From: Gemmatimonadota bacterium
GTDB taxonomy: Bacteria > Gemmatimonadota > Gemmatimonadetes > Gemmatimonadales > GWC2-71-9
Direction: 5' to 3'
Length of the DNA stretch: 8,717 bases
Assembly (NCBI GenBank): GCA_029862935.1
Contig: JAOTWK010000127.1
Location: forward strand, 1 to 8,717
Numbering within the stretch: the first letter of the stretch is position 1; each line of letters begins with the position of its first letter. Made by a program: the position numbers and the translations under genes. Shown here in pieces: positions 1 to 7,592 of the stretch. The notes under the pieces are model-generated. The model saw nothing but the letters and a program-made list of their open reading frames with translations. It had not been told where the DNA came from and searched no databases.

Positions 1-2085
1 CAACCGCTCTTGGTGGACGTACGCGACGACCACGGGATCACGCGAATCGAACTCGTGAGTTGGCGCGTGAGCCGGCTGGGCCAGACGTCAAACCCTCAGA
101 CGGAGGTTCTGCGTGCGCCGGACGGCTCAGCGGCGCGTGCCATCATTCAGGCCACACTCGATTTGAACGGTCGCGGGTTTCTCCCCGCTGACACGGCGTA
201 CTTCCAAGTGCGGGCGTTCGACAACGCTCCCACGCGACAGCTGGGTGTGAGCCACGTGTTTCGGTTGCGGCTTGCGTCGATGGCCGAGTTGCGGCGGGCG
301 ATGCGTGAAGCGTCCCGTGCTGCCGGTGCCAGCGCGGATTCCCTGGTCAGCGAACAGCAAGATCTCGTACGGCGACTGGAGGATGTGGCGGCCGAACGCG
401 AGCGGTCGGCCGCCACAGCCGGAGGCGCGGAGCAAGGCGAGCGTTTGCCGTTTGAGTCTGCCGAGCGCGCACGCGAGCTGCTCGACGCAGAGCGCGATCT
501 GACGGACCGAGCGCAGCAACTCGGCGATGAAGTCCGGCAGTTGGCTGACGCAGCCTGGGAAGCGGGCATCACCGATCCCGAGTTCCACCGTCAGCTGCGC
601 GATATCCAGGACTTGATGCGCCGCGCCGTAACGCAGGATCTGCTGGACCGCCTCGCCGAGTTGCAGCAGGCCGTTGACCGTCTGGATGCCGCCGACGTGC
701 GCGAGGCGCTCCGCCAGCTGTCTAGCGCCGCGGACCAGCTGCGCGAAACGTTGGAACGGGGGCGCGACCTATTTGAGCGTGCCGCGATCGAGGGTGAGCT
801 CACCACGCTTTCCGCTGACGCCGACGACCTCGCGCAAGTACAAGATGCCTGGAACGCCTCGCTGAATGAGCGTGTGGAGCGTAGCGCCGCCGATGAAGAA
901 CAGGAGCGTGCGGACCGGACGCGCGAACTGGAACAGCGGCTCGATGAGTTGGAGCGGATGTTGGATTCGGCAGGGGCTGCGAGCGAGGCAGTCGTGAACG
1001 GTGGAGATCGTGCCGGCGAGGCCGCCCGGGCGATGGATCGTGCGGCGACCGGGGCAGAGCAGGGCGACGCCCAGCGCGCGCGGCAGGCTGGCACCGAGGC
1101 GAGTGAGGCTCTCGACCCAGTCGGGGCGGCGCTGCGGCAGGAGCGCGATCGACTGCGCGAGGAATGGCGCCAAGAGGTGTTGGCGGAAATGGATCAGGCA
1201 TTGGTCGAAACGGTCGAGTTGACCAAAGCCCAGGAGGGTGTGGAAGGTCGTCTGCGGCGCGGGGAGTCAGGTGCGGATGTCCGCGGCGACCAAGCGGCTA
1301 TTAGAGAAGGCGTCGACCGGATCGTCGATCGCATGCAGGCCGCCGCCGGCAAGAATGCGCTCGTCTCCCCGCAAACGGGTGCGGCACTCGGTCTCGCGCG
1401 ACACCGCATGGATGAGGCGTTGGATCAGCTCCAGCGGCCATCGCCCAACACGCGAGATGCGGGCACGCTGGCGGGCGACGCAGTCGACGCGCTGACCGAG
1501 GCCGTCTATGCTATGATCCGAGGCCGGGGCGAGGTAGCGGGTGCGGAGTCTGGTTCGGGCTTGGCGGAAGCGCTGGAGCGCATGGCCGAGTTGGCGAGTG
1601 AGCAGGGACAGATGAACGGGCAGGCAGCAGGGCTGCTCCCGACATTCGAGTCCGGTGGACTGCAGCTCATGCAGGAACTGCAAGCGTTGGCCGCGCGGCA
1701 ACAGGCGCTCGCGCGCGAGCTCGAGCAGTTGCGCGCGGACGGTGAGCTGAGTGGCACTGGGGAGTTGGCCGACGAGGCTGACGATATCGCCGAGCAACTT
1801 GGAGGCGGGCGGCTCGACAACGAGATCCTGGAGCGACAGGAGCGTCTGTTCCGGCGGTTGCTCGACGCGGGTCGAACGCTCGAGAGCGACCAGGAAGACG
1901 AGCGTCGGGACCGGGTCGCCGAATCGGCGCGGCCCGGCAACGTGCGACTTCCCGCGGCCGCGGACGTTTCGCTGGGTGCGTCCCGGTACCGCTATCCGTC
2001 CTGGGCGGAATTGCGTACGCTGACGCCCGACCAGCGTCGGCTCATTCTCGAGTACTTCCGGCGGCTCAATGCGCCGCGTCCGTAG
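1..2085 (+). CDS. DUF4175-like coiled-coil protein, 5'-partial
   Basis: The reading frame is open from the first base, and the first codons already lie inside a conserved beta-strand pattern (VDVRDDHGITRIEL). The true start, and probably N-terminal membrane segments, are therefore upstream of the window; the TTG at nt 10 is not a credible start. To about nt 285 the protein is a beta-rich, Ig-like segment ending in AFDNAPTRQ and VFRLRLAS. From there to about nt 1920 it is almost entirely Glu/Arg/Ala/Leu-rich helix with heptad-like stretches, most clearly at nt 460-830 and 890-980. A short conserved-looking tail (YRYPSWAELRTLTPDQRRL, nt 1996-2052) follows. The order Ig-like strand, helical bundle and coiled coil resembles DUF4175 family proteins, which are membrane-anchored and of unknown biochemical function. 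Those often follow MoxR/DUF58/BatA genes (family knowledge, recalled and not searched). The 3' end overlaps the TPR gene by 17 nt. No enzymatic motif was seen; a structural or scaffold role is inferred. Confidence 0.75.
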   Translation, partial: QPLLVDVRDDHGITRIELVSWRVSRLGQTSNPQTEVLRAPDGSAARAIIQATLDLNGRGFLPADTAYFQVRAFDNAPTRQLGVSHVFRLRLASMAELRRAMREASRAAGASADSLVSEQQDLVRRLEDVAAERERSAATAGGAEQGERLPFESAERARELLDAERDLTDRAQQLGDEVRQLADAAWEAGITDPEFHRQLRDIQDLMRRAVTQDLLDRLAELQQAVDRLDAADVREALRQLSSAADQLRETLERGRDLFERAAIEGELTTLSADADDLAQVQDAWNASLNERVERSAADEEQERADRTRELEQRLDELERMLDSAGAASEAVVNGGDRAGEAARAMDRAATGAEQGDAQRARQAGTEASEALDPVGAALRQERDRLREEWRQEVLAEMDQALVETVELTKAQEGVEGRLRRGESGADVRGDQAAIREGVDRIVDRMQAAAGKNALVSPQTGAALGLARHRMDEALDQLQRPSPNTRDAGTLAGDAVDALTEAVYAMIRGRGEVAGAESGSGLAEALERMAELASEQGQMNGQAAGLLPTFESGGLQLMQELQALAARQQALARELEQLRADGELSGTGELADEADDIAEQLGGGRLDNEILERQERLFRRLLDAGRTLESDQEDERRDRVAESARPGNVRLPAAADVSLGASRYRYPSWAELRTLTPDQRRLILEYFRRLNAPRP

Positions 2086-3784
2086 CGCGCTTCTCGTTCT
2101 CAGTCTCGTGGTCCTGCCCGAGCTGGCGCTCGCGCAGAGTCCGCTGCAGTTGGAACGGGACGGCCGTCTCGCCGAAGCTTCTGGTGCATACCGCCGCGCA
2201 CTCGATGTAGACCCCGCCGATGTCAGCGCCCTGTTGGGCCTCGAGCGTGTGCTGTTGCGTCTTGGGCACTTGGATTCCCTACGCCGTTATCTCACACGCG
2301 CCGTGCGCAGTATCCCGACGAGCGAAGCGGTTCGCGAGCTGCACTTCCGGACAGTGGCGGCGCTCGACGGAGACGACAGCGTTGCCGTGGTCGCGGCGCA
2401 GTGGATGGCGTCGATACCCACGAGTACCAACCCGTATCGTGCATGGGCGCAGTGGCTCGCCAGTCGGGGGCGACTCGAGGAGGCTCGCGCCGTCATCGCG
2501 CGAGGCGGTGAACGGATCGGAGACATCCGGTTGACGCAGTACGGCGCGCAGCTGGCCGTACAGGCCGCGGACTGGGACGACGCGGCACGGCAGTGGGCGC
2601 GTGCGGTCGCCGCCAGCCCCGAGCTCACGGCGAGTGCCAGCACCGGACTGCGGCGCATTCCTGAGGAGCGCCGCGCGCCGGTGCTCCGCTTCTTGACGAC
2701 GGAGGCGGGTCCCCCCGGCACCTGGATCGCGGCGAACCTGCTCGCCGCGTGGGACCGACCGGGCGAGGGGTGGAGTCTGCTGGCCAGCGCACTTCCGAAC
2801 GACGAGTCCCAAGCGCCTGTGCTGTTGCGCCGTTTTGCCGATGCTGCGTCGGAGACCGGGACGAGCGAGGGCCTTCGGGCCCGCGGGTTTGCGTTGGAAC
2901 GGTTGGCGGAGTTGTTGCGGGGTCCCGCGGCCGATCGCGCGCGGCTGGACGCGGCGCAAGCCTTTGCCAATGCGGGCAGTTTAGCCGGTGCGCAGCGGAT
3001 GCTGGATCGCGTCTCGGTCGATCGGGGAGAGAGCTCACGAGAGGCTGCGGCGGCCATGGCCACCTTCATCCGGGTGCTTGCCGATGCTGGACAGGTCGAG
3101 GCGGCGGCAAACCGGTTTCGCGAATGGGAAGCGCAATTGGCACCGCGTGATGCAGAGCGCATCCGCGAGACGATCGCGTGGGCATGGATTCGGCGTGGCG
3201 AATTCGCGCGTGGCCAGGCGCTCCTTGGATCCGATTCGACGCCGGGTGCGCACGCCGTGCTCGGTTGGATCGCGCTCTATCAAGGGGAGCTCGCCACGGC
3301 TAGACACCACTTCGATGCGGCGGGACCGTACGCCCGGGAGCGTGCCGAGGCGACACGTCGCGCCGCCATGCTGGTGCTGTTGGAGCGGGTGCAGGTGGCA
3401 CGGCACCCGGCGTTGGGTGCGGCCTTGCTCGGTCTCGAGGGAGACAAAGTGAGCCGGGCTGTTGCCGAGCTGCGCCAGGCAGCCGAGCGGCTCGGCTCGA
3501 GTGGGCGCGCGGCCGTCTTGACGGTTGCTGGAGAAGCCGCGTCGAAAGAAGGTGATGCTGCAACGGCGGAGGCGGTGCTGCTCGAGGCCATCGCGAGTGA
3601 TCCGCAGGGTCCCATGGCGCCGAGTGCGGAGTATCAGCTCGCAACGGTGTACGTCTCTTCGGGACGAACGGACGAAGCGATCGATCGGCTGGAGCGGTTG
3701 ATTCTCACGTATCCCCGGAGCGCGCTCGTGCCACAGGCCCGACGGTTGTTGGACCGGGTACGAGGGATGGTCCCGAACTCATGA
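2069..3784 (+). CDS. Exported tetratricopeptide-repeat protein
   Basis: This 571-residue protein starts at an ATG inside the end of the upstream gene. That start is supported because it gives an immediate Sec-type signal peptide: MRRVRS, a hydrophobic core ALLVLSLVVL, and an ALA|Q cleavage site after residue 22. The mature protein is predicted to be periplasmic. Residues 26-93 form about two TPR-like helix pairs (LAEASGAYRRALDVDPADV is the clearest). The middle is a degenerate alpha-solenoid of repeated A-W-x-R-x-G and A-A-x-x-W patterns. Residues 517-565 are a strong BamD/YbgF-style TPR (YQLATVYVSSGRTDEAIDRL followed by TYPRS). Such repeats bind other proteins and have no catalysis of their own. 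The coupled position between a coiled-coil envelope protein and a Tat-exported protein suggests a scaffold for an envelope complex, but no partner can be proved. No strong Shine-Dalgarno precedes the start, so reinitiation from the upstream gene is likely. The stop overlaps the next ATG (ATGA). Confidence 0.85.
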   Translation: MRRVRSALLVLSLVVLPELALAQSPLQLERDGRLAEASGAYRRALDVDPADVSALLGLERVLLRLGHLDSLRRYLTRAVRSIPTSEAVRELHFRTVAALDGDDSVAVVAAQWMASIPTSTNPYRAWAQWLASRGRLEEARAVIARGGERIGDIRLTQYGAQLAVQAADWDDAARQWARAVAASPELTASASTGLRRIPEERRAPVLRFLTTEAGPPGTWIAANLLAAWDRPGEGWSLLASALPNDESQAPVLLRRFADAASETGTSEGLRARGFALERLAELLRGPAADRARLDAAQAFANAGSLAGAQRMLDRVSVDRGESSREAAAAMATFIRVLADAGQVEAAANRFREWEAQLAPRDAERIRETIAWAWIRRGEFARGQALLGSDSTPGAHAVLGWIALYQGELATARHHFDAAGPYARERAEATRRAAMLVLLERVQVARHPALGAALLGLEGDKVSRAVAELRQAAERLGSSGRAAVLTVAGEAASKEGDAATAEAVLLEAIASDPQGPMAPSAEYQLATVYVSSGRTDEAIDRLERLILTYPRSALVPQARRLLDRVRGMVPNS

Positions 3785-5082
3785 AACGGCGGGATTTTGT
3801 CGGTGCGGGCGTGGCGGCATGCGTCCCGCTGGCGTTTGGGGATCTCGCGCTCGGCGTCGGCGGACGGCGGTCGAGACGCGCACCGTGGTTACTCGTGCCC
3901 ATGGACGAGCGTCAGACAAACCACTTGAAGGCATACGGCGTCCTGTTCCGCGCGCTCAAGCGAGGAGCCACGGGTGAGTGGCTGCTCAATTATCGGGGTG
4001 GGAGTTTTCTCGTCTCCGACGACCCGGTCGTTTTGCGGGAGGCGGCGCTAGACGGCGTTCACGTCGAACCGATCACCGCGAGTCAGGAAGTGGATGTGCG
4101 CGGGACGATCGCCGCGAGCAACATGGACTCCGTACCGCTCGAGAAAGCCCCTCGCGTGGCCGTGTACGTTCCTCCGAACACCGCCCCATGGGACGATGCG
4201 GTGACGATGGCGCTCGAGTATGCCGGCATCGCGTACGACAAGGTATGGGATCCCGAAGTGCTGGCGGGCGGGTTGAGTGACTATGAGTGGCTCCACTTGC
4301 ATCACGAAGATTTCACGGGGCAGTATTCCAAGTTCCTTCTCACGGCGAGCGGATCGCCGTGGCTCCGCGAAATGGTTCGCGTCTACGAGCGAACGGCACA
4401 AGCCCTGGGGTTTGCCAACCCAGCAGATCTCAAGAAGGCCGCTGCTCGGGCCATTCGTCGCTACGTGGAAGACGGTGGATTTCTGTTTGCCATGTGCACG
4501 GCGACGGAGACACTGGGGATCGCGCTGGCCGCCGAGGACGTGGACGTGGCGGCCGCGTTCAGTGATGGCACACCGATGGATCCCGACGCGTCGGCGCGGC
4601 TCAACTGGGAACGGTCGTTCGCCTTCACGGGCGCCGCGCTCGAGCCCTCTCCGTCTGTGGCGAGCTTCTCCGACATAGACGGCCACCAGGTGAATCACGC
4701 GGTGCGCCGGCAACCGCTCGGCGCGTTCACCCTGTTCAATTTCAGCGCGAAGATCGATCCGGTGCCGGCAATGCTGGTGCAATGCCATCGCAACGTGATT
4801 CCGGATTTCTACGGGCTTACGACCTCGTTCACGCGCGCGCGCCTCAGACCCGACGTGATCGTGTTGGCGGAAGAGCCGGGTGCCCCGTGGGTCAAATACA
4901 TCCACGGCAATCGTGGGGAGGGGACCTGGACGTTCTTTGGGGGGCACGATCCGGAAGACCCGCAGCACCAGATCGGTGATCCACCAACCGATCTGTCGTT
5001 GCACCCCCATTCGCCCGGGTATCGACTGATTCTCAATAACGTGTTGTTCCCGGCGGCCAAGAAGCGCGAGCTCAAGACGTGA
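3781..5082 (+). CDS. Tat-exported protein of the family labelled 'asparagine synthetase B'; GATase-like fold suspected
   Basis: This is a 433-residue protein. Residues 1-25 look like a twin-arginine signal (KRRDFVGAG plus a modest hydrophobic stretch). Conserved blocks I recognise from a Bacteroidetes family annotated 'asparagine synthetase B' are PMDERQTNHLKAYG (40-53), WLLNYRGGSF (67-76), PWDDAVTMALEYAGI (near 136-150), WLHLHHEDFTGQY (170-182), GGFLFAMCTATE (near 232-243), FFGGHDPEDPQHQ (385-397) and SPGYRLILNNVLFPAAKK (411-428). It has neither an N-terminal catalytic Cys for an Ntn-type glutaminase nor an SGGxDS ATP-pyrophosphatase loop, so a true AsnB activity is unlikely. The strand-turn layout around 'DYEWLHLHHED' and 'GGFLFAMC' resembles class I glutamine amidotransferase, ThuA or DUF4159-like folds. 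C239 with H389 and E392 is a speculative triad, and H172/H174/H175/E176 a possible metal site. The protein overlaps both neighbours by 4 nt. Family membership is fairly sure; function is unknown. Confidence 0.75.
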   Translation: MKRRDFVGAGVAACVPLAFGDLALGVGGRRSRRAPWLLVPMDERQTNHLKAYGVLFRALKRGATGEWLLNYRGGSFLVSDDPVVLREAALDGVHVEPITASQEVDVRGTIAASNMDSVPLEKAPRVAVYVPPNTAPWDDAVTMALEYAGIAYDKVWDPEVLAGGLSDYEWLHLHHEDFTGQYSKFLLTASGSPWLREMVRVYERTAQALGFANPADLKKAAARAIRRYVEDGGFLFAMCTATETLGIALAAEDVDVAAAFSDGTPMDPDASARLNWERSFAFTGAALEPSPSVASFSDIDGHQVNHAVRRQPLGAFTLFNFSAKIDPVPAMLVQCHRNVIPDFYGLTTSFTRARLRPDVIVLAEEPGAPWVKYIHGNRGEGTWTFFGGHDPEDPQHQIGDPPTDLSLHPHSPGYRLILNNVLFPAAKKRELKT

Positions 5083-7592
5083 CCACACTCTCTGCGGAGG
5101 CACGGGCCACCCTGGCCAACGAAATCGCCGCCGCCGGCGGGCGTGAAGTGTCATTTGTCGGCAGCGTCGACGAAGACGGTTGCATCGTGGACGTGCGCGC
5201 GGTGGCACGGGGAACGGTGCAGGAAGTCCTCGCGTTACCCGGCGTCGCTGCGCGCGGTGAAATCGTCTTGCACAATCATCCGAGCGGCGAACTGGATCCG
5301 TCCGCCGCCGATCTGCACGTGGCAGCGGGACTGCACGACGAAGGTGTCGGGTTCGCGATTGTCGACAACCACGCTGACACGCTCTACGTCGTGGTCGAGG
5401 TGCCACGCCGGACCGAGCGCGTCCCACTGGATGCCGTTGCCATTGCGAACACGCTGGCAGAAGGCGGGTCGGTCGCCCGCGTACTCGGGCAGTTCGAAGA
5501 CCGCGCGAGCCAGCGCGACATGGCGGCCTACGTAGCGGATACATACAACGAGGGTGGGGTGTCGCTGTTGGAAGCGGGAACTGGTGTGGGGAAGTCGTTC
5601 GCTTATCTCGTTCCCGCCATCGAGTGGAGCCTCGCCAACGGCGAGCGCACCATGGTGTCGACGAACACCATCAATCTGCAGGAGCAGTTGATCGGCAAAG
5701 ACCTTCCGCTCCTCGCACACGCGTTCGCGGAGCGAGAGCGCGAACCGGCGTTCGCGATCCTCAAAGGCTGGAACAACTACCTCTGCCTCGCTCGCCTCGG
5801 GTTTGCCATGAGCGGGCAGACCTCGTTGTTGGAGCCCGAGCTACAAAGCGAGCTCGGCACGCTCGAGGAATGGGCCGCGCGTACGAGTGATGGCTCGCTC
5901 GCCGATCTACTGGACCAGCCGACGATCGAGGTGTGGGAGGAAGTCCGGGCGGAGCCGGATCTGTGCACTCGGCTCGAGTGTCCACAGTTCGACCGGTGCT
6001 TCTTGTTCGAGGCGCGGCGTCGGGCTGCCGAAGCAGATGTCGTGGTGGTGAATCACCATTTGCTCGCGGCGGATCTCGCCGTCCGACGCGCCCAGGAGAA
6101 CTGGCAGGAAGCGGCCGTGCTGCCGCCCTATCGACGCCTCATCTTGGACGAGGGCCACCACCTGGAAGATGTGGCCGCGCAGCATCTCGGCTCGCAGGTC
6201 ACGTCCCGTGGCGTCATGCGATTGCTCAGTCGACTCGAGCGAAACGGCAAGGGACTCATCCCGGCGCTGCTCACCGAACTGGCGGTGCGCGGCGACCTGC
6301 TGAGCGATGCGTCGGCCGACTTGCTCCGCGACTCGTTGCTGCCAGCGGTATCGACGGCCCGCACCCACGTCGAGCAGGTGTTCCGCCTGCTCGCCGAGCG
6401 ACTCGCCAAGGAATCGGCGCCGGTGCTGCGGCTGGACGACCGATTCGCTGCGGACCCCCTGTGGGAGCGCGGCCTCTCGGTGGCATTGGACAACGTGATG
6501 TCCGCACTTGGTGCGCTCCGCGACGGCGTCGACATGGTGGCCGATCGCATGGAGCTCACCGAAGAACCGGATCGCCGCTCGCAGATCGTGCAGGAGTTGC
6601 GTGGCGTCGTGCGTCGGCTGCAGATGGCGGCGGACGGATTCGTGTTGGCGTTGCGGCCATTGCCTGGCGCCGAGCTGGTTCGCTGGATGGAGCGGCGTGG
6701 CACTCGGCCCACCGGTGGCCTGCCGTTTCCGATGGCGCTTGCCGCCGTGCCACTCGACCTCGCGACCATGCTGCGCGAATCCCTGTTCGACAAGGTCGAG
6801 ACAGTGGTCGTTACGAGCGCGACGCTCGCGGCGGGTGGGAGTTACGATTTTCTGCGTGAACGCATTGGACTGGCGCAGCCGCCCGACCCGGTGCGGTACG
6901 CGGAGATCCTGCCGTCGCCCTTCGAGTTCTCGCAGCAATGCTTGCTCGGCGTTCCGACGGACCTGGACGATCCGCGCAGCAACGAAGCGGGACATGATCG
7001 GGCAGTTGCACGAGCGGTCGTGGAGCTCGCACATGCGTCCGACGGTGGCCTGTTCGTCCTGTTCACCAGCCACGCGGCACTCAGACGCGCTGCCGCCGCC
7101 GTGCGCAGCGACGTCGGCGCGCGGTGGCCGCTCTTGGTCCAGGGCGAAGCCCCACGCGATTTCCTGTTGCGCCGATTCCGCGAGCTGGGCTCAGCGGTGC
7201 TGTTGGGGACGGACAGCTTCTGGGAAGGGGTCGACGTACCGGGACGCTCGCTCCGGGCGTTGGTGCTCGCGAAACTCCCGTTCAAGGTGCCGACCGAGCC
7301 GCTCACGGCGGCGCGCATCGAGGCATTGGAGGCGCAGGGTCTCGACGGATTCCGCCATTACCTGCTGCCGCTCGCCGCGCTCAAGCTCAAGCAGGGCTTT
7401 GGACGGTTGATCCGGTCGAAGGCCGATGTGGGCGTCGTAGTCATACTCGATCCCCGTGTCGTGACGCGGAATTACGGTGAGGTGCTGCTGCGGACTCTTC
7501 CGCCGGCCGAGCGCGTCGTTGGCTCCTGGGCGGACGTGCGTGGCTCTGCCGAGGAATTCTTCGCGCGCCACGGCATTGGAGCGCCGGCATGA
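5079..7592 (+). CDS. dinG: JAMM/JAB domain fused to DinG-family Fe-S DNA helicase
   Basis: This 837-residue protein starts at a GTG overlapping the previous stop (GTGA). Residues 1 to about 125 form a RadC-like JAB domain with a complete JAMM zinc signature: E23, H65-N-H67-P, S75 and D78, in the spacing HxH-x7-S-x2-D. From about residue 145 it is a superfamily 2 XPD/DinG helicase. Walker A is EAGTGVGKS (165-173, K172), motif Ia is near TNTINLQEQL, and four Fe-S cysteines are C236, C296, C301 and C307. The x4 and x5 spacing of the last three matches what I recall for E. coli DinG. Walker B is DEGH (357-360), motif III TSATL (579-583), motif V GTDSFWEGVD (710-719) and motif VI QGFGRLIR (772-779). 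The family unwinds DNA 5'->3', including D-loops and R-loops, using ATP. Some Firmicutes DinG proteins carry an N-terminal exonuclease; here a JAMM-type domain takes that place. All core residues are intact, so an active helicase is expected. The substrate of the JAMM domain is unknown. Confidence 0.92.
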   Translation: MTTLSAEARATLANEIAAAGGREVSFVGSVDEDGCIVDVRAVARGTVQEVLALPGVAARGEIVLHNHPSGELDPSAADLHVAAGLHDEGVGFAIVDNHADTLYVVVEVPRRTERVPLDAVAIANTLAEGGSVARVLGQFEDRASQRDMAAYVADTYNEGGVSLLEAGTGVGKSFAYLVPAIEWSLANGERTMVSTNTINLQEQLIGKDLPLLAHAFAEREREPAFAILKGWNNYLCLARLGFAMSGQTSLLEPELQSELGTLEEWAARTSDGSLADLLDQPTIEVWEEVRAEPDLCTRLECPQFDRCFLFEARRRAAEADVVVVNHHLLAADLAVRRAQENWQEAAVLPPYRRLILDEGHHLEDVAAQHLGSQVTSRGVMRLLSRLERNGKGLIPALLTELAVRGDLLSDASADLLRDSLLPAVSTARTHVEQVFRLLAERLAKESAPVLRLDDRFAADPLWERGLSVALDNVMSALGALRDGVDMVADRMELTEEPDRRSQIVQELRGVVRRLQMAADGFVLALRPLPGAELVRWMERRGTRPTGGLPFPMALAAVPLDLATMLRESLFDKVETVVVTSATLAAGGSYDFLRERIGLAQPPDPVRYAEILPSPFEFSQQCLLGVPTDLDDPRSNEAGHDRAVARAVVELAHASDGGLFVLFTSHAALRRAAAAVRSDVGARWPLLVQGEAPRDFLLRRFRELGSAVLLGTDSFWEGVDVPGRSLRALVLAKLPFKVPTEPLTAARIEALEAQGLDGFRHYLLPLAALKLKQGFGRLIRSKADVGVVVILDPRVVTRNYGEVLLRTLPPAERVVGSWADVRGSAEEFFARHGIGAPA
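7578..7581 (+). promoter_or_regulatory. Ribosome binding site for the aminotransferase gene
   Basis: A GGAG (within TTGGAG) lies 7 nt before the ATG at 7589. It is the best Shine-Dalgarno match at any of the four gene junctions in this window, and it supports that ATG as the start although it lies inside the helicase reading frame. Confidence 0.6.

What the first reader, a model, noticed from the sequence alone, without database searches (positions are those of the whole stretch)
5079..7592. RadC-type JAMM metalloprotease domain fused to a complete DinG Fe-S helicase
One uninterrupted protein carries a full JAMM signature (E23, H65, H67, S75, D78) followed by all helicase motifs and the four-cysteine Fe-S set. 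RadC-like HNHPSG domains are usually linked to a helix-hairpin-helix region, and DinG proteins, when fused, usually carry an exonuclease domain. A JAMM-helicase combination with both catalytic sites intact suggests a peptidase or isopeptidase step coupled to unwinding, for example removing protein from DNA at stalled forks or R-loops. That functional reading is inference. I cannot tell from here whether this architecture has been described.
Basis: partly seen in the sequence, partly recalled or inferred. Interest (0 to 1): 0.75.

Follow-up and report, generated by a model that had tools for sequence, protein, structure and literature searches.

The report
DNA helicase with JAMM zinc domain
This bacterial protein joins a zinc-enzyme domain of the protease type to a DNA-unwinding motor; the combination was named in 2025 but its function has not been studied, and it may clear proteins stuck on DNA.

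The parts
5079..7592 (+). RadC-like DinG gene, 837 aa plus stop, GTG start
   Evidence: ORF and translation; NCBIfam YoaA 554 bits, DinG models 421.5 and 398 bits, all under their equivalog cut-offs; AF2 model pLDDT 91.0, pTM 0.86
5079..5468 (+). N-terminal RadC-type JAMM/JAB domain, residues 1-130
5145..5147 (+). codon of E23, the JAMM glutamate
   Evidence: residue position; invariant in the 82-row alignment A2
5271..5312 (+). codons 65-78, HNHPSGELDPSAAD, JAMM HxHx7SxxD (H65, H67, S75, D78)
   Evidence: most rows of A2 were found with a pattern that fixes HNHP
5577..5597 (+). Walker A GTGVGKS, residues 167-173
   Evidence: G167 T168 G169 G171 K172 invariant
5784..5999 (+). Fe-S region with C236, C296, C301, C307
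   Evidence: C307 invariant, the other three at 90% or more
6147..6161 (+). DEGHH (DEAH-box), residues 357-361
   Evidence: D357, E358 invariant
7020..7505 (+). Helicase_C_2 domain, residues 648-809, with QGFGRLIR at 772
   Evidence: Pfam 143.6 bits

Best explanation
The gene encodes a 'RadC-like DinG': a JAMM-type zinc hydrolase fused in front of a YoaA/DinG-type Fe-S DNA helicase, an old, vertically inherited chromosomal protein that was the only strong DinG-family match in most of the surveyed gemmatimonad and fusobacterial genomes that had one. Most likely working: the helicase loads on single-stranded DNA, moves along it, runs into and strains or unfolds a protein fixed on the DNA (a crosslink or a tight roadblock), and the JAMM site cuts the exposed chain; that is, one chain doing what the helicase FANCJ and the protease SPRTN do together in human-protein assays. 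Shown: architecture, predicted fold, near-invariant zinc-site residues, co-evolution of the two parts, presence beside an ordinary RadC in most genomes checked. Inferred: zinc binding, peptide-bond cleavage, the protein-on-DNA substrate and the direction of travel. A second, non-catalytic role of the domain (docking or regulating the motor) is inferred from two lineages that kept the domain but not its active site.
Against: I saw no peptidase activity reported for a RadC protein: PMC300881 calls RadC's function unknown (passage). Aravind's group argues that RadC-clade JAB domains lack the groove for a ubiquitin tail and are more likely nucleases (passages). Active-site residues are lost in two fusobacterial lineages while the domain stays, and the domain is lost outright in about seven lineages of the tree, so the coupling is dispensable. 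Most neighbour groups are confined to one phylum and none points to protein repair. No SOS-like box was found upstream in 106 loci with four consensus patterns recalled from memory.
Confidence: 0.4

Rival explanations
1. The JAMM domain is a nuclease or nucleotide hydrolase, placed at the same end as the exonuclease of ExoDinG, that trims DNA as the helicase unwinds.
For: Proposed for RadC from domain context (passages of PMC5512222, and PMC3482391): RadC occupies positions that other nucleases occupy in fusions. In the DinG family N-terminal exonuclease and endonuclease domains occur (ExoDinG, EndoDinG: PMC11981726).
Confidence: 0.25
2. The domain is mainly a docking or regulatory module (for a clamp, SSB or polymerase subunit), and the zinc site tunes structure or sensing rather than cutting.
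For: In two fusobacterial lineages the catalytic residues are gone but the domain keeps its length and shows dN/dS of 0.14-0.36 in 7 pairs, against 0.08-0.29 for the helicase of the same pairs (dS near saturation). hhalign aligns the dead domain end to end with the live one, E 4.3e-8, 129 columns. Cheng notes that organisms with RadC-like DinG lack HolC, the partner of YoaA (passage).
Against: The five residues stay fixed across phyla although the N-domain differs by 63% on average between rows, which a pure scaffold does not need. The dead domains evolve somewhat faster than live ones (domain/helicase ratio 1.41 against 1.02).
Confidence: 0.2
3. An isopeptidase for a bacterial ubiquitin-like modifier, removing it from a replication or repair protein.
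For: Structural neighbours include deubiquitinases and the bacterial BubCD; archaeal and Deinococcus JAMM proteins act on Ubl conjugates (starts of abstracts listed).
Against: No Ubl, E1 or E2 family in the rows shown for the five window ORFs scanned, and no shared neighbour of that kind elsewhere (largest 28 clusters only). RadC-clade domains are said to lack the tail groove (passage).
Confidence: 0.1

Closest known systems
RadC-like DinG subgroup (Cheng 2025, PMC11981726, section 3.8; example Desulfuromonas soudanensis)
   Same: N-terminal RadC-like domain, conserved E/H/H/D, YoaA-like helicase with Fe-S and Arch regions, JAMM-type neighbours in a fold search
   Different: Cheng's main text has 0 hits for gemmatimon-, spirochaet- and fusobacter- (supplementary tables and figures not seen). 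Catalytic and domain losses are not discussed in the passages seen.
YoaA (NCBIfam NF053712)
   Same: Best NCBIfam hit, 554 bits over residues 124-813
   Different: Below the 680-bit cut-off; YoaA has no JAMM domain
RadC (PF04002; NF000642; structure 2qlc)
   Same: HNHPSG motif, fold, PF04002 cut-off passed
   Different: 26.6 bits against a cut-off of 180 for NF000642; a lone RadC is a separate gene in most genomes checked; no helix-hairpin-helix family hit here
FANCJ helicase plus SPRTN protease
   Same: A helicase (Fe-S and XPD-like: recalled, not from a call) and a protease acting on protein fixed to DNA
   Different: Two separate proteins; the protease is SprT-type, not JAMM; similarity of working is a hypothesis only
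Rpn11, CSN5, PfJAMM1, AfJAMM, BubCD
   Same: JAB/MPN fold; ExnHxHx7SxxD site (motif from the abstract of PMC300881)
   Different: N between the two His instead of S/T; known substrates of several of them are ubiquitin-like conjugates

Membership tests
RadC-like DinG | N-terminal RadC-like domain on a DinG-type helicase | tested here: met
RadC-like DinG | Conserved E, H, H, D in the RadC-like domain | tested here: met
   E23, H65, H67, D78
RadC-like DinG | Intact helicase motifs and Fe-S cysteines | tested here: met
   four Cys present
RadC-like DinG | Host lacks HolC | not tested
   No whole genome is held for the window
JAMM/MPN+ metalloprotease | ExnH(S/T)Hx7SxxD motif | tested here: met
   E23...HNHx7SxxD, with N for S/T (the motif is quoted in the abstract of PMC300881)
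JAMM/MPN+ metalloprotease | JAB/MPN fold | tested here: met
   AF2 and fold searches
JAMM/MPN+ metalloprotease | Zinc-dependent peptide or isopeptide cleavage | not testable with these tools
   Needs biochemistry
RadC equivalog (NF000642) | Curated score cut-off 180 bits | tested here: not met
   26.6 bits
YoaA equivalog (NF053712) | Curated score cut-off 680 bits | tested here: not met
   554.2 bits
DinG equivalogs (NF005981, NF008729) | Curated score cut-offs 789 and 598 bits | tested here: not met
   421.5 and 398 bits
Type IV CRISPR CasDinG | Part of a csf locus | tested here: inconclusive
   PADLOC typeIV_DinG model matches at 412 bits; no cas family in the rows shown for the other four scanned ORFs of the 8.7 kb window
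ExoDinG | N-terminal DnaQ-type exonuclease | tested here: not met
   Residues 1-130 match RadC only in Pfam at E up to 0.1

The most novel reading that the evidence does not exclude
A bacterial single-chain protease-helicase for DNA-protein crosslinks: the Fe-S helicase drives into the protein adduct and a JAMM zinc site cuts it, a further chemistry for this repair beside SprT-type proteases and the proteasome. In the lineage of Fusobacterium nucleatum the protease part has died and survives as a pseudo-enzyme that still serves the helicase.
Probability: 0.25. Interest if true: 0.85.

Novelty: new member of a known kind. Interest (0 to 1): 0.42.

Why it matters
RadC's function is disputed (passages). 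A fusion to a DNA helicase limits what RadC-type chemistry can be for, and natural pseudo-enzyme and domain-less relatives provide ready-made controls: helicases with a live domain, a dead domain and no domain. If the peptidase reading holds, it would add a helicase-coupled protease to bacterial DNA-protein crosslink repair.

Tried and rejected
Mobile or viral origin: the fusion pattern has 0 matches in viral contigs. Among the phage and plasmid tblastn rows listed (30 of 318 plasmid records, 20 of 40 phage records) all begin at residue 119 or later except one chromosome-sized Fusobacterium record. No support for a mobile origin; unlisted rows were not seen.

Conserved operon partner: 796 neighbour ORFs were clustered and the 28 largest clusters looked at. 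The large ones lie within one phylum (a 7TM-HD protein after the gene in fusobacteria; the TPR and other neighbours of the window in gemmatimonads; one gemmatimonad cluster also holds L105). A few clusters of 3-4 loci span phyla, such as a metallo-beta-lactamase protein in L073, L099, L100. Several long opposite-strand clusters look like reading-frame artefacts. No general partner.

SOS control: four LexA-like consensus patterns, recalled and not from a call, found no site within 250 bases upstream in 106 loci; two GAACN4GTTC matches in the window (4609, 5742) lie inside ORFs. No support, not a disproof.

Chance or mis-assembly as the source of the fusion: excluded by 118 loci.

Some 'lost domain' rows are edge effects: L190 (G036; an N part lies on another contig), L268 (G286, gene at the contig end) and G320 (match starts at base 11 of its contig). 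The tree's 8 changes for 'lost' include L190, so at most 7 are real; FastTree warned of long branches meeting, and the nine-row domain-less fusobacterial clade and L279 are the least sure.

RadC 2qlc is not among the 50 VIA-align rows although it is Foldseek's best hit; a row not listed is not excluded.

JAMM residues in the gemmatimonads were read for 8 of the 69 full-length copies (all EHHSD), besides the pattern loci.
Full report
Observation. The ORF at 5079-7592 (+) is real, uninterrupted and 837 aa long. Pfam gives RadC PF04002 (26.9 bits, cut-off 22.1), Helicase_C_2 (143.6 bits) and DEAD (25.6 bits, just under its cut-off of 26). NCBIfam puts the helicase nearest to YoaA (554 bits, cut-off 680), then two DinG models (421.5 of 789 and 398 of 598); the RadC model NF000642 gives 26.6 bits against 180. 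[quoted passage not shown] PADLOC's type IV CRISPR DinG models match as well (best 412 bits), which I take as family resemblance. The window's organism is not told; the close relatives that carry a name are mostly called Gemmatimonadota or Gemmatimonadales.

Prior description. Cheng 2025 (PMC11981726; [quoted passage not shown] PMC5512222 (passages) mentions RadC fusions to DinG/RAD3-like helicases and argues for nucleic-acid processing; PMC3482391 (passage) argues likewise and credits an earlier paper; the one I looked up from memory as that paper is not held. A full-text search for 'RadC-like DinG' returned only Cheng. The architecture is therefore known; function is open.

Distribution. Record titles name Gemmatimonadota, Desulfuromonadales and other 'Deltaproteobacteria', Spirochaetes, Fusobacterium and Psychrilyobacter, Planctomycetota including Brocadia, Sumerlaeota, Riflebacteria, Halanaerobium and 'Bacillota', Latescibacterota, Myxococcota, Calditrichota, KSB1 and one Acidimicrobiia MAG; MAG labels may be wrong. 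Group surveys with a profile of the whole protein: Gemmatimonadota, 81 of 101 genomes match (E up to 1e-60), 69 full-length with the N-domain, 4 partial with it, 6 helicase-only, 2 cut by contig ends. Fusobacteriota, 93 of 98 match (E up to 1e-20): 78 full-length, 11 helicase-only, 4 split or partial. Spirochaetota, 109 of 120 match (E up to 1e-40), 63 full-length with the N-domain by my count of the rows and 2 more in pieces; the rest lack it or match only in the helicase. The phylum of Geobacter argillaceus, 25 of 79 match (E up to 1e-100) and 8 are full-length with the N-domain. Nearly all matching gemmatimonad and fusobacterial genomes have a single protein at these cut-offs, extra rows being pieces of one gene except in G077; weaker relatives are not excluded.

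Conservation of the zinc site. All five residues are present in 115 of 118 pattern loci (the pattern fixes the two His). Of the other three, L055 and L093 are cut at the end of the stretch and L080 has a frame break right after HNHP, real or a sequencing error. All five are present in 48 of 48 spirochaete copies read, out of 63 full-length; these 48 include the 18 lowest-scoring, 8 of which have changed the SG after HNHP. In fusobacteria 73 of 78 full-length copies have all five. The query and its 120 listed relatives all carry H[NST]HPx6SxxD (121 of 121).

Dead and lost domains. Five of the 78 fusobacterial copies, plus the F. vincentii record L001 and the F. polymorphum and F. nucleatum proteins P0166, P0188 and P0227, keep the domain but read SRTSE, SKASD, SRASE or DRYSD in place of EHHSD. 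hhalign aligns the dead domain with the live one over 129 columns at E 4.3e-8, while a Pfam scan of L001's protein does not list RadC; Pfam is weak here anyway, since several live-site proteins also lack PF04002. Within the dead lineages the domain still evolves under constraint: dN/dS 0.14-0.36, helicase 0.08-0.29, in 7 pairs, dS near saturation. It is somewhat relaxed: 19 intact pairs with a value gave 0.06-0.31 for the domain, and the protein-difference ratio domain/helicase has median 1.41 in 6 dead-dead pairs against 1.02 in 535 intact pairs, and 2.06 in 27 intact-dead pairs. Thus the domain seems to have a role without the zinc site, at least there. The whole domain was lost in about seven lineages of the tree (an eighth, L190, is a contig-edge artefact).

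Relation to ordinary RadC. Of 24 genomes with the fusion from the pattern loci, 19 also have a separate RadC of 130 bits or more, one has split pieces of one, and four show only the fused domain or no match (my count). In 38 chosen fusobacterial genomes, with live, dead or absent domain, all 38 have a RadC of 127-147 bits apart from the fused gene. Losing the fused zinc site is therefore not tied to losing RadC, and in most genomes the fused domain is not the cell's only RadC-type domain.

One old fusion. Over 156 diverse rows, N-domain and helicase distances correlate at r 0.717, and none of 999 permutations came near (largest 0.10); both parts differ by about 63% on average. This fits one ancient fusion inherited as a unit; a dated origin was not tested.

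How it may work. The nearest working parallel is FANCJ with SPRTN: in passages of PMC12279946 FANCJ loads on ssDNA, moves into a crosslinked protein and unfolds it, which lets SPRTN cleave. A DinG/YoaA-type Fe-S helicase with a zinc hydrolase at its N-terminus could do both in one chain. This is inference; a search for YoaA, DinG and protein crosslink together found no paper. The nuclease reading has published advocates and is not excluded; a pure scaffold is unlikely in most lineages because the site is so fixed, but a scaffold role in addition is supported by the dead domains. Neither neighbours nor SOS-like boxes help to decide.

Verdict. Added here, and not seen in the passages read, are the natural series of live, dead and missing domains, the surveys and the crosslink-repair hypothesis. 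I score interest 0.42: known architecture, untested function, a testable open question.

Noticed in passing
window 3781-5082 (+): A 433-aa ORF beginning MKRRDFVGAGVAA, which looks like a twin-arginine export signal (recalled), with no Pfam or NCBIfam hit, overlapping the start of the helicase gene.
   Followed up: no
window 1-2085 (+): A glutamate-, arginine- and alanine-rich protein of about 690 aa, open at the window's edge, with no Pfam or NCBIfam hit, next to a TPR protein at 2069-3784; similar upstream neighbours recur in gemmatimonad loci.
   Followed up: partly
L001:3983-6442; L186-L189, L204: Fusobacterial JAMM domains in which the metal-binding residues are replaced wholly or in large part, not listed as RadC by Pfam in the one scanned (L001), kept under purifying selection.
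   Followed up: yes
L099:3407-4384 (+): Upstream of the fusion in Calditrichota, KSB1 and one unnamed bacterium (L099, L100, L073) lies a metallo-beta-lactamase protein; the L099 copy has RMMBL and DRMBL hits.
   Followed up: no
pattern loci L002-L119: In 23 of 118 loci one Fe-S cysteine is replaced (12 SCCC, 8 CTCC, 3 CSCC; 5 more not fully read), so one cysteine seems replaceable.
   Followed up: no
L274 (G306): A gemmatimonad helicase-only relative has up to about 280 aa of open frame before the helicase, with no match to the JAMM part of the profile (true start not determined).
   Followed up: no
L080 7131: A Longimicrobiaceae MAG copy has a frame break just after HNHP, real or a sequencing error.
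   Followed up: no
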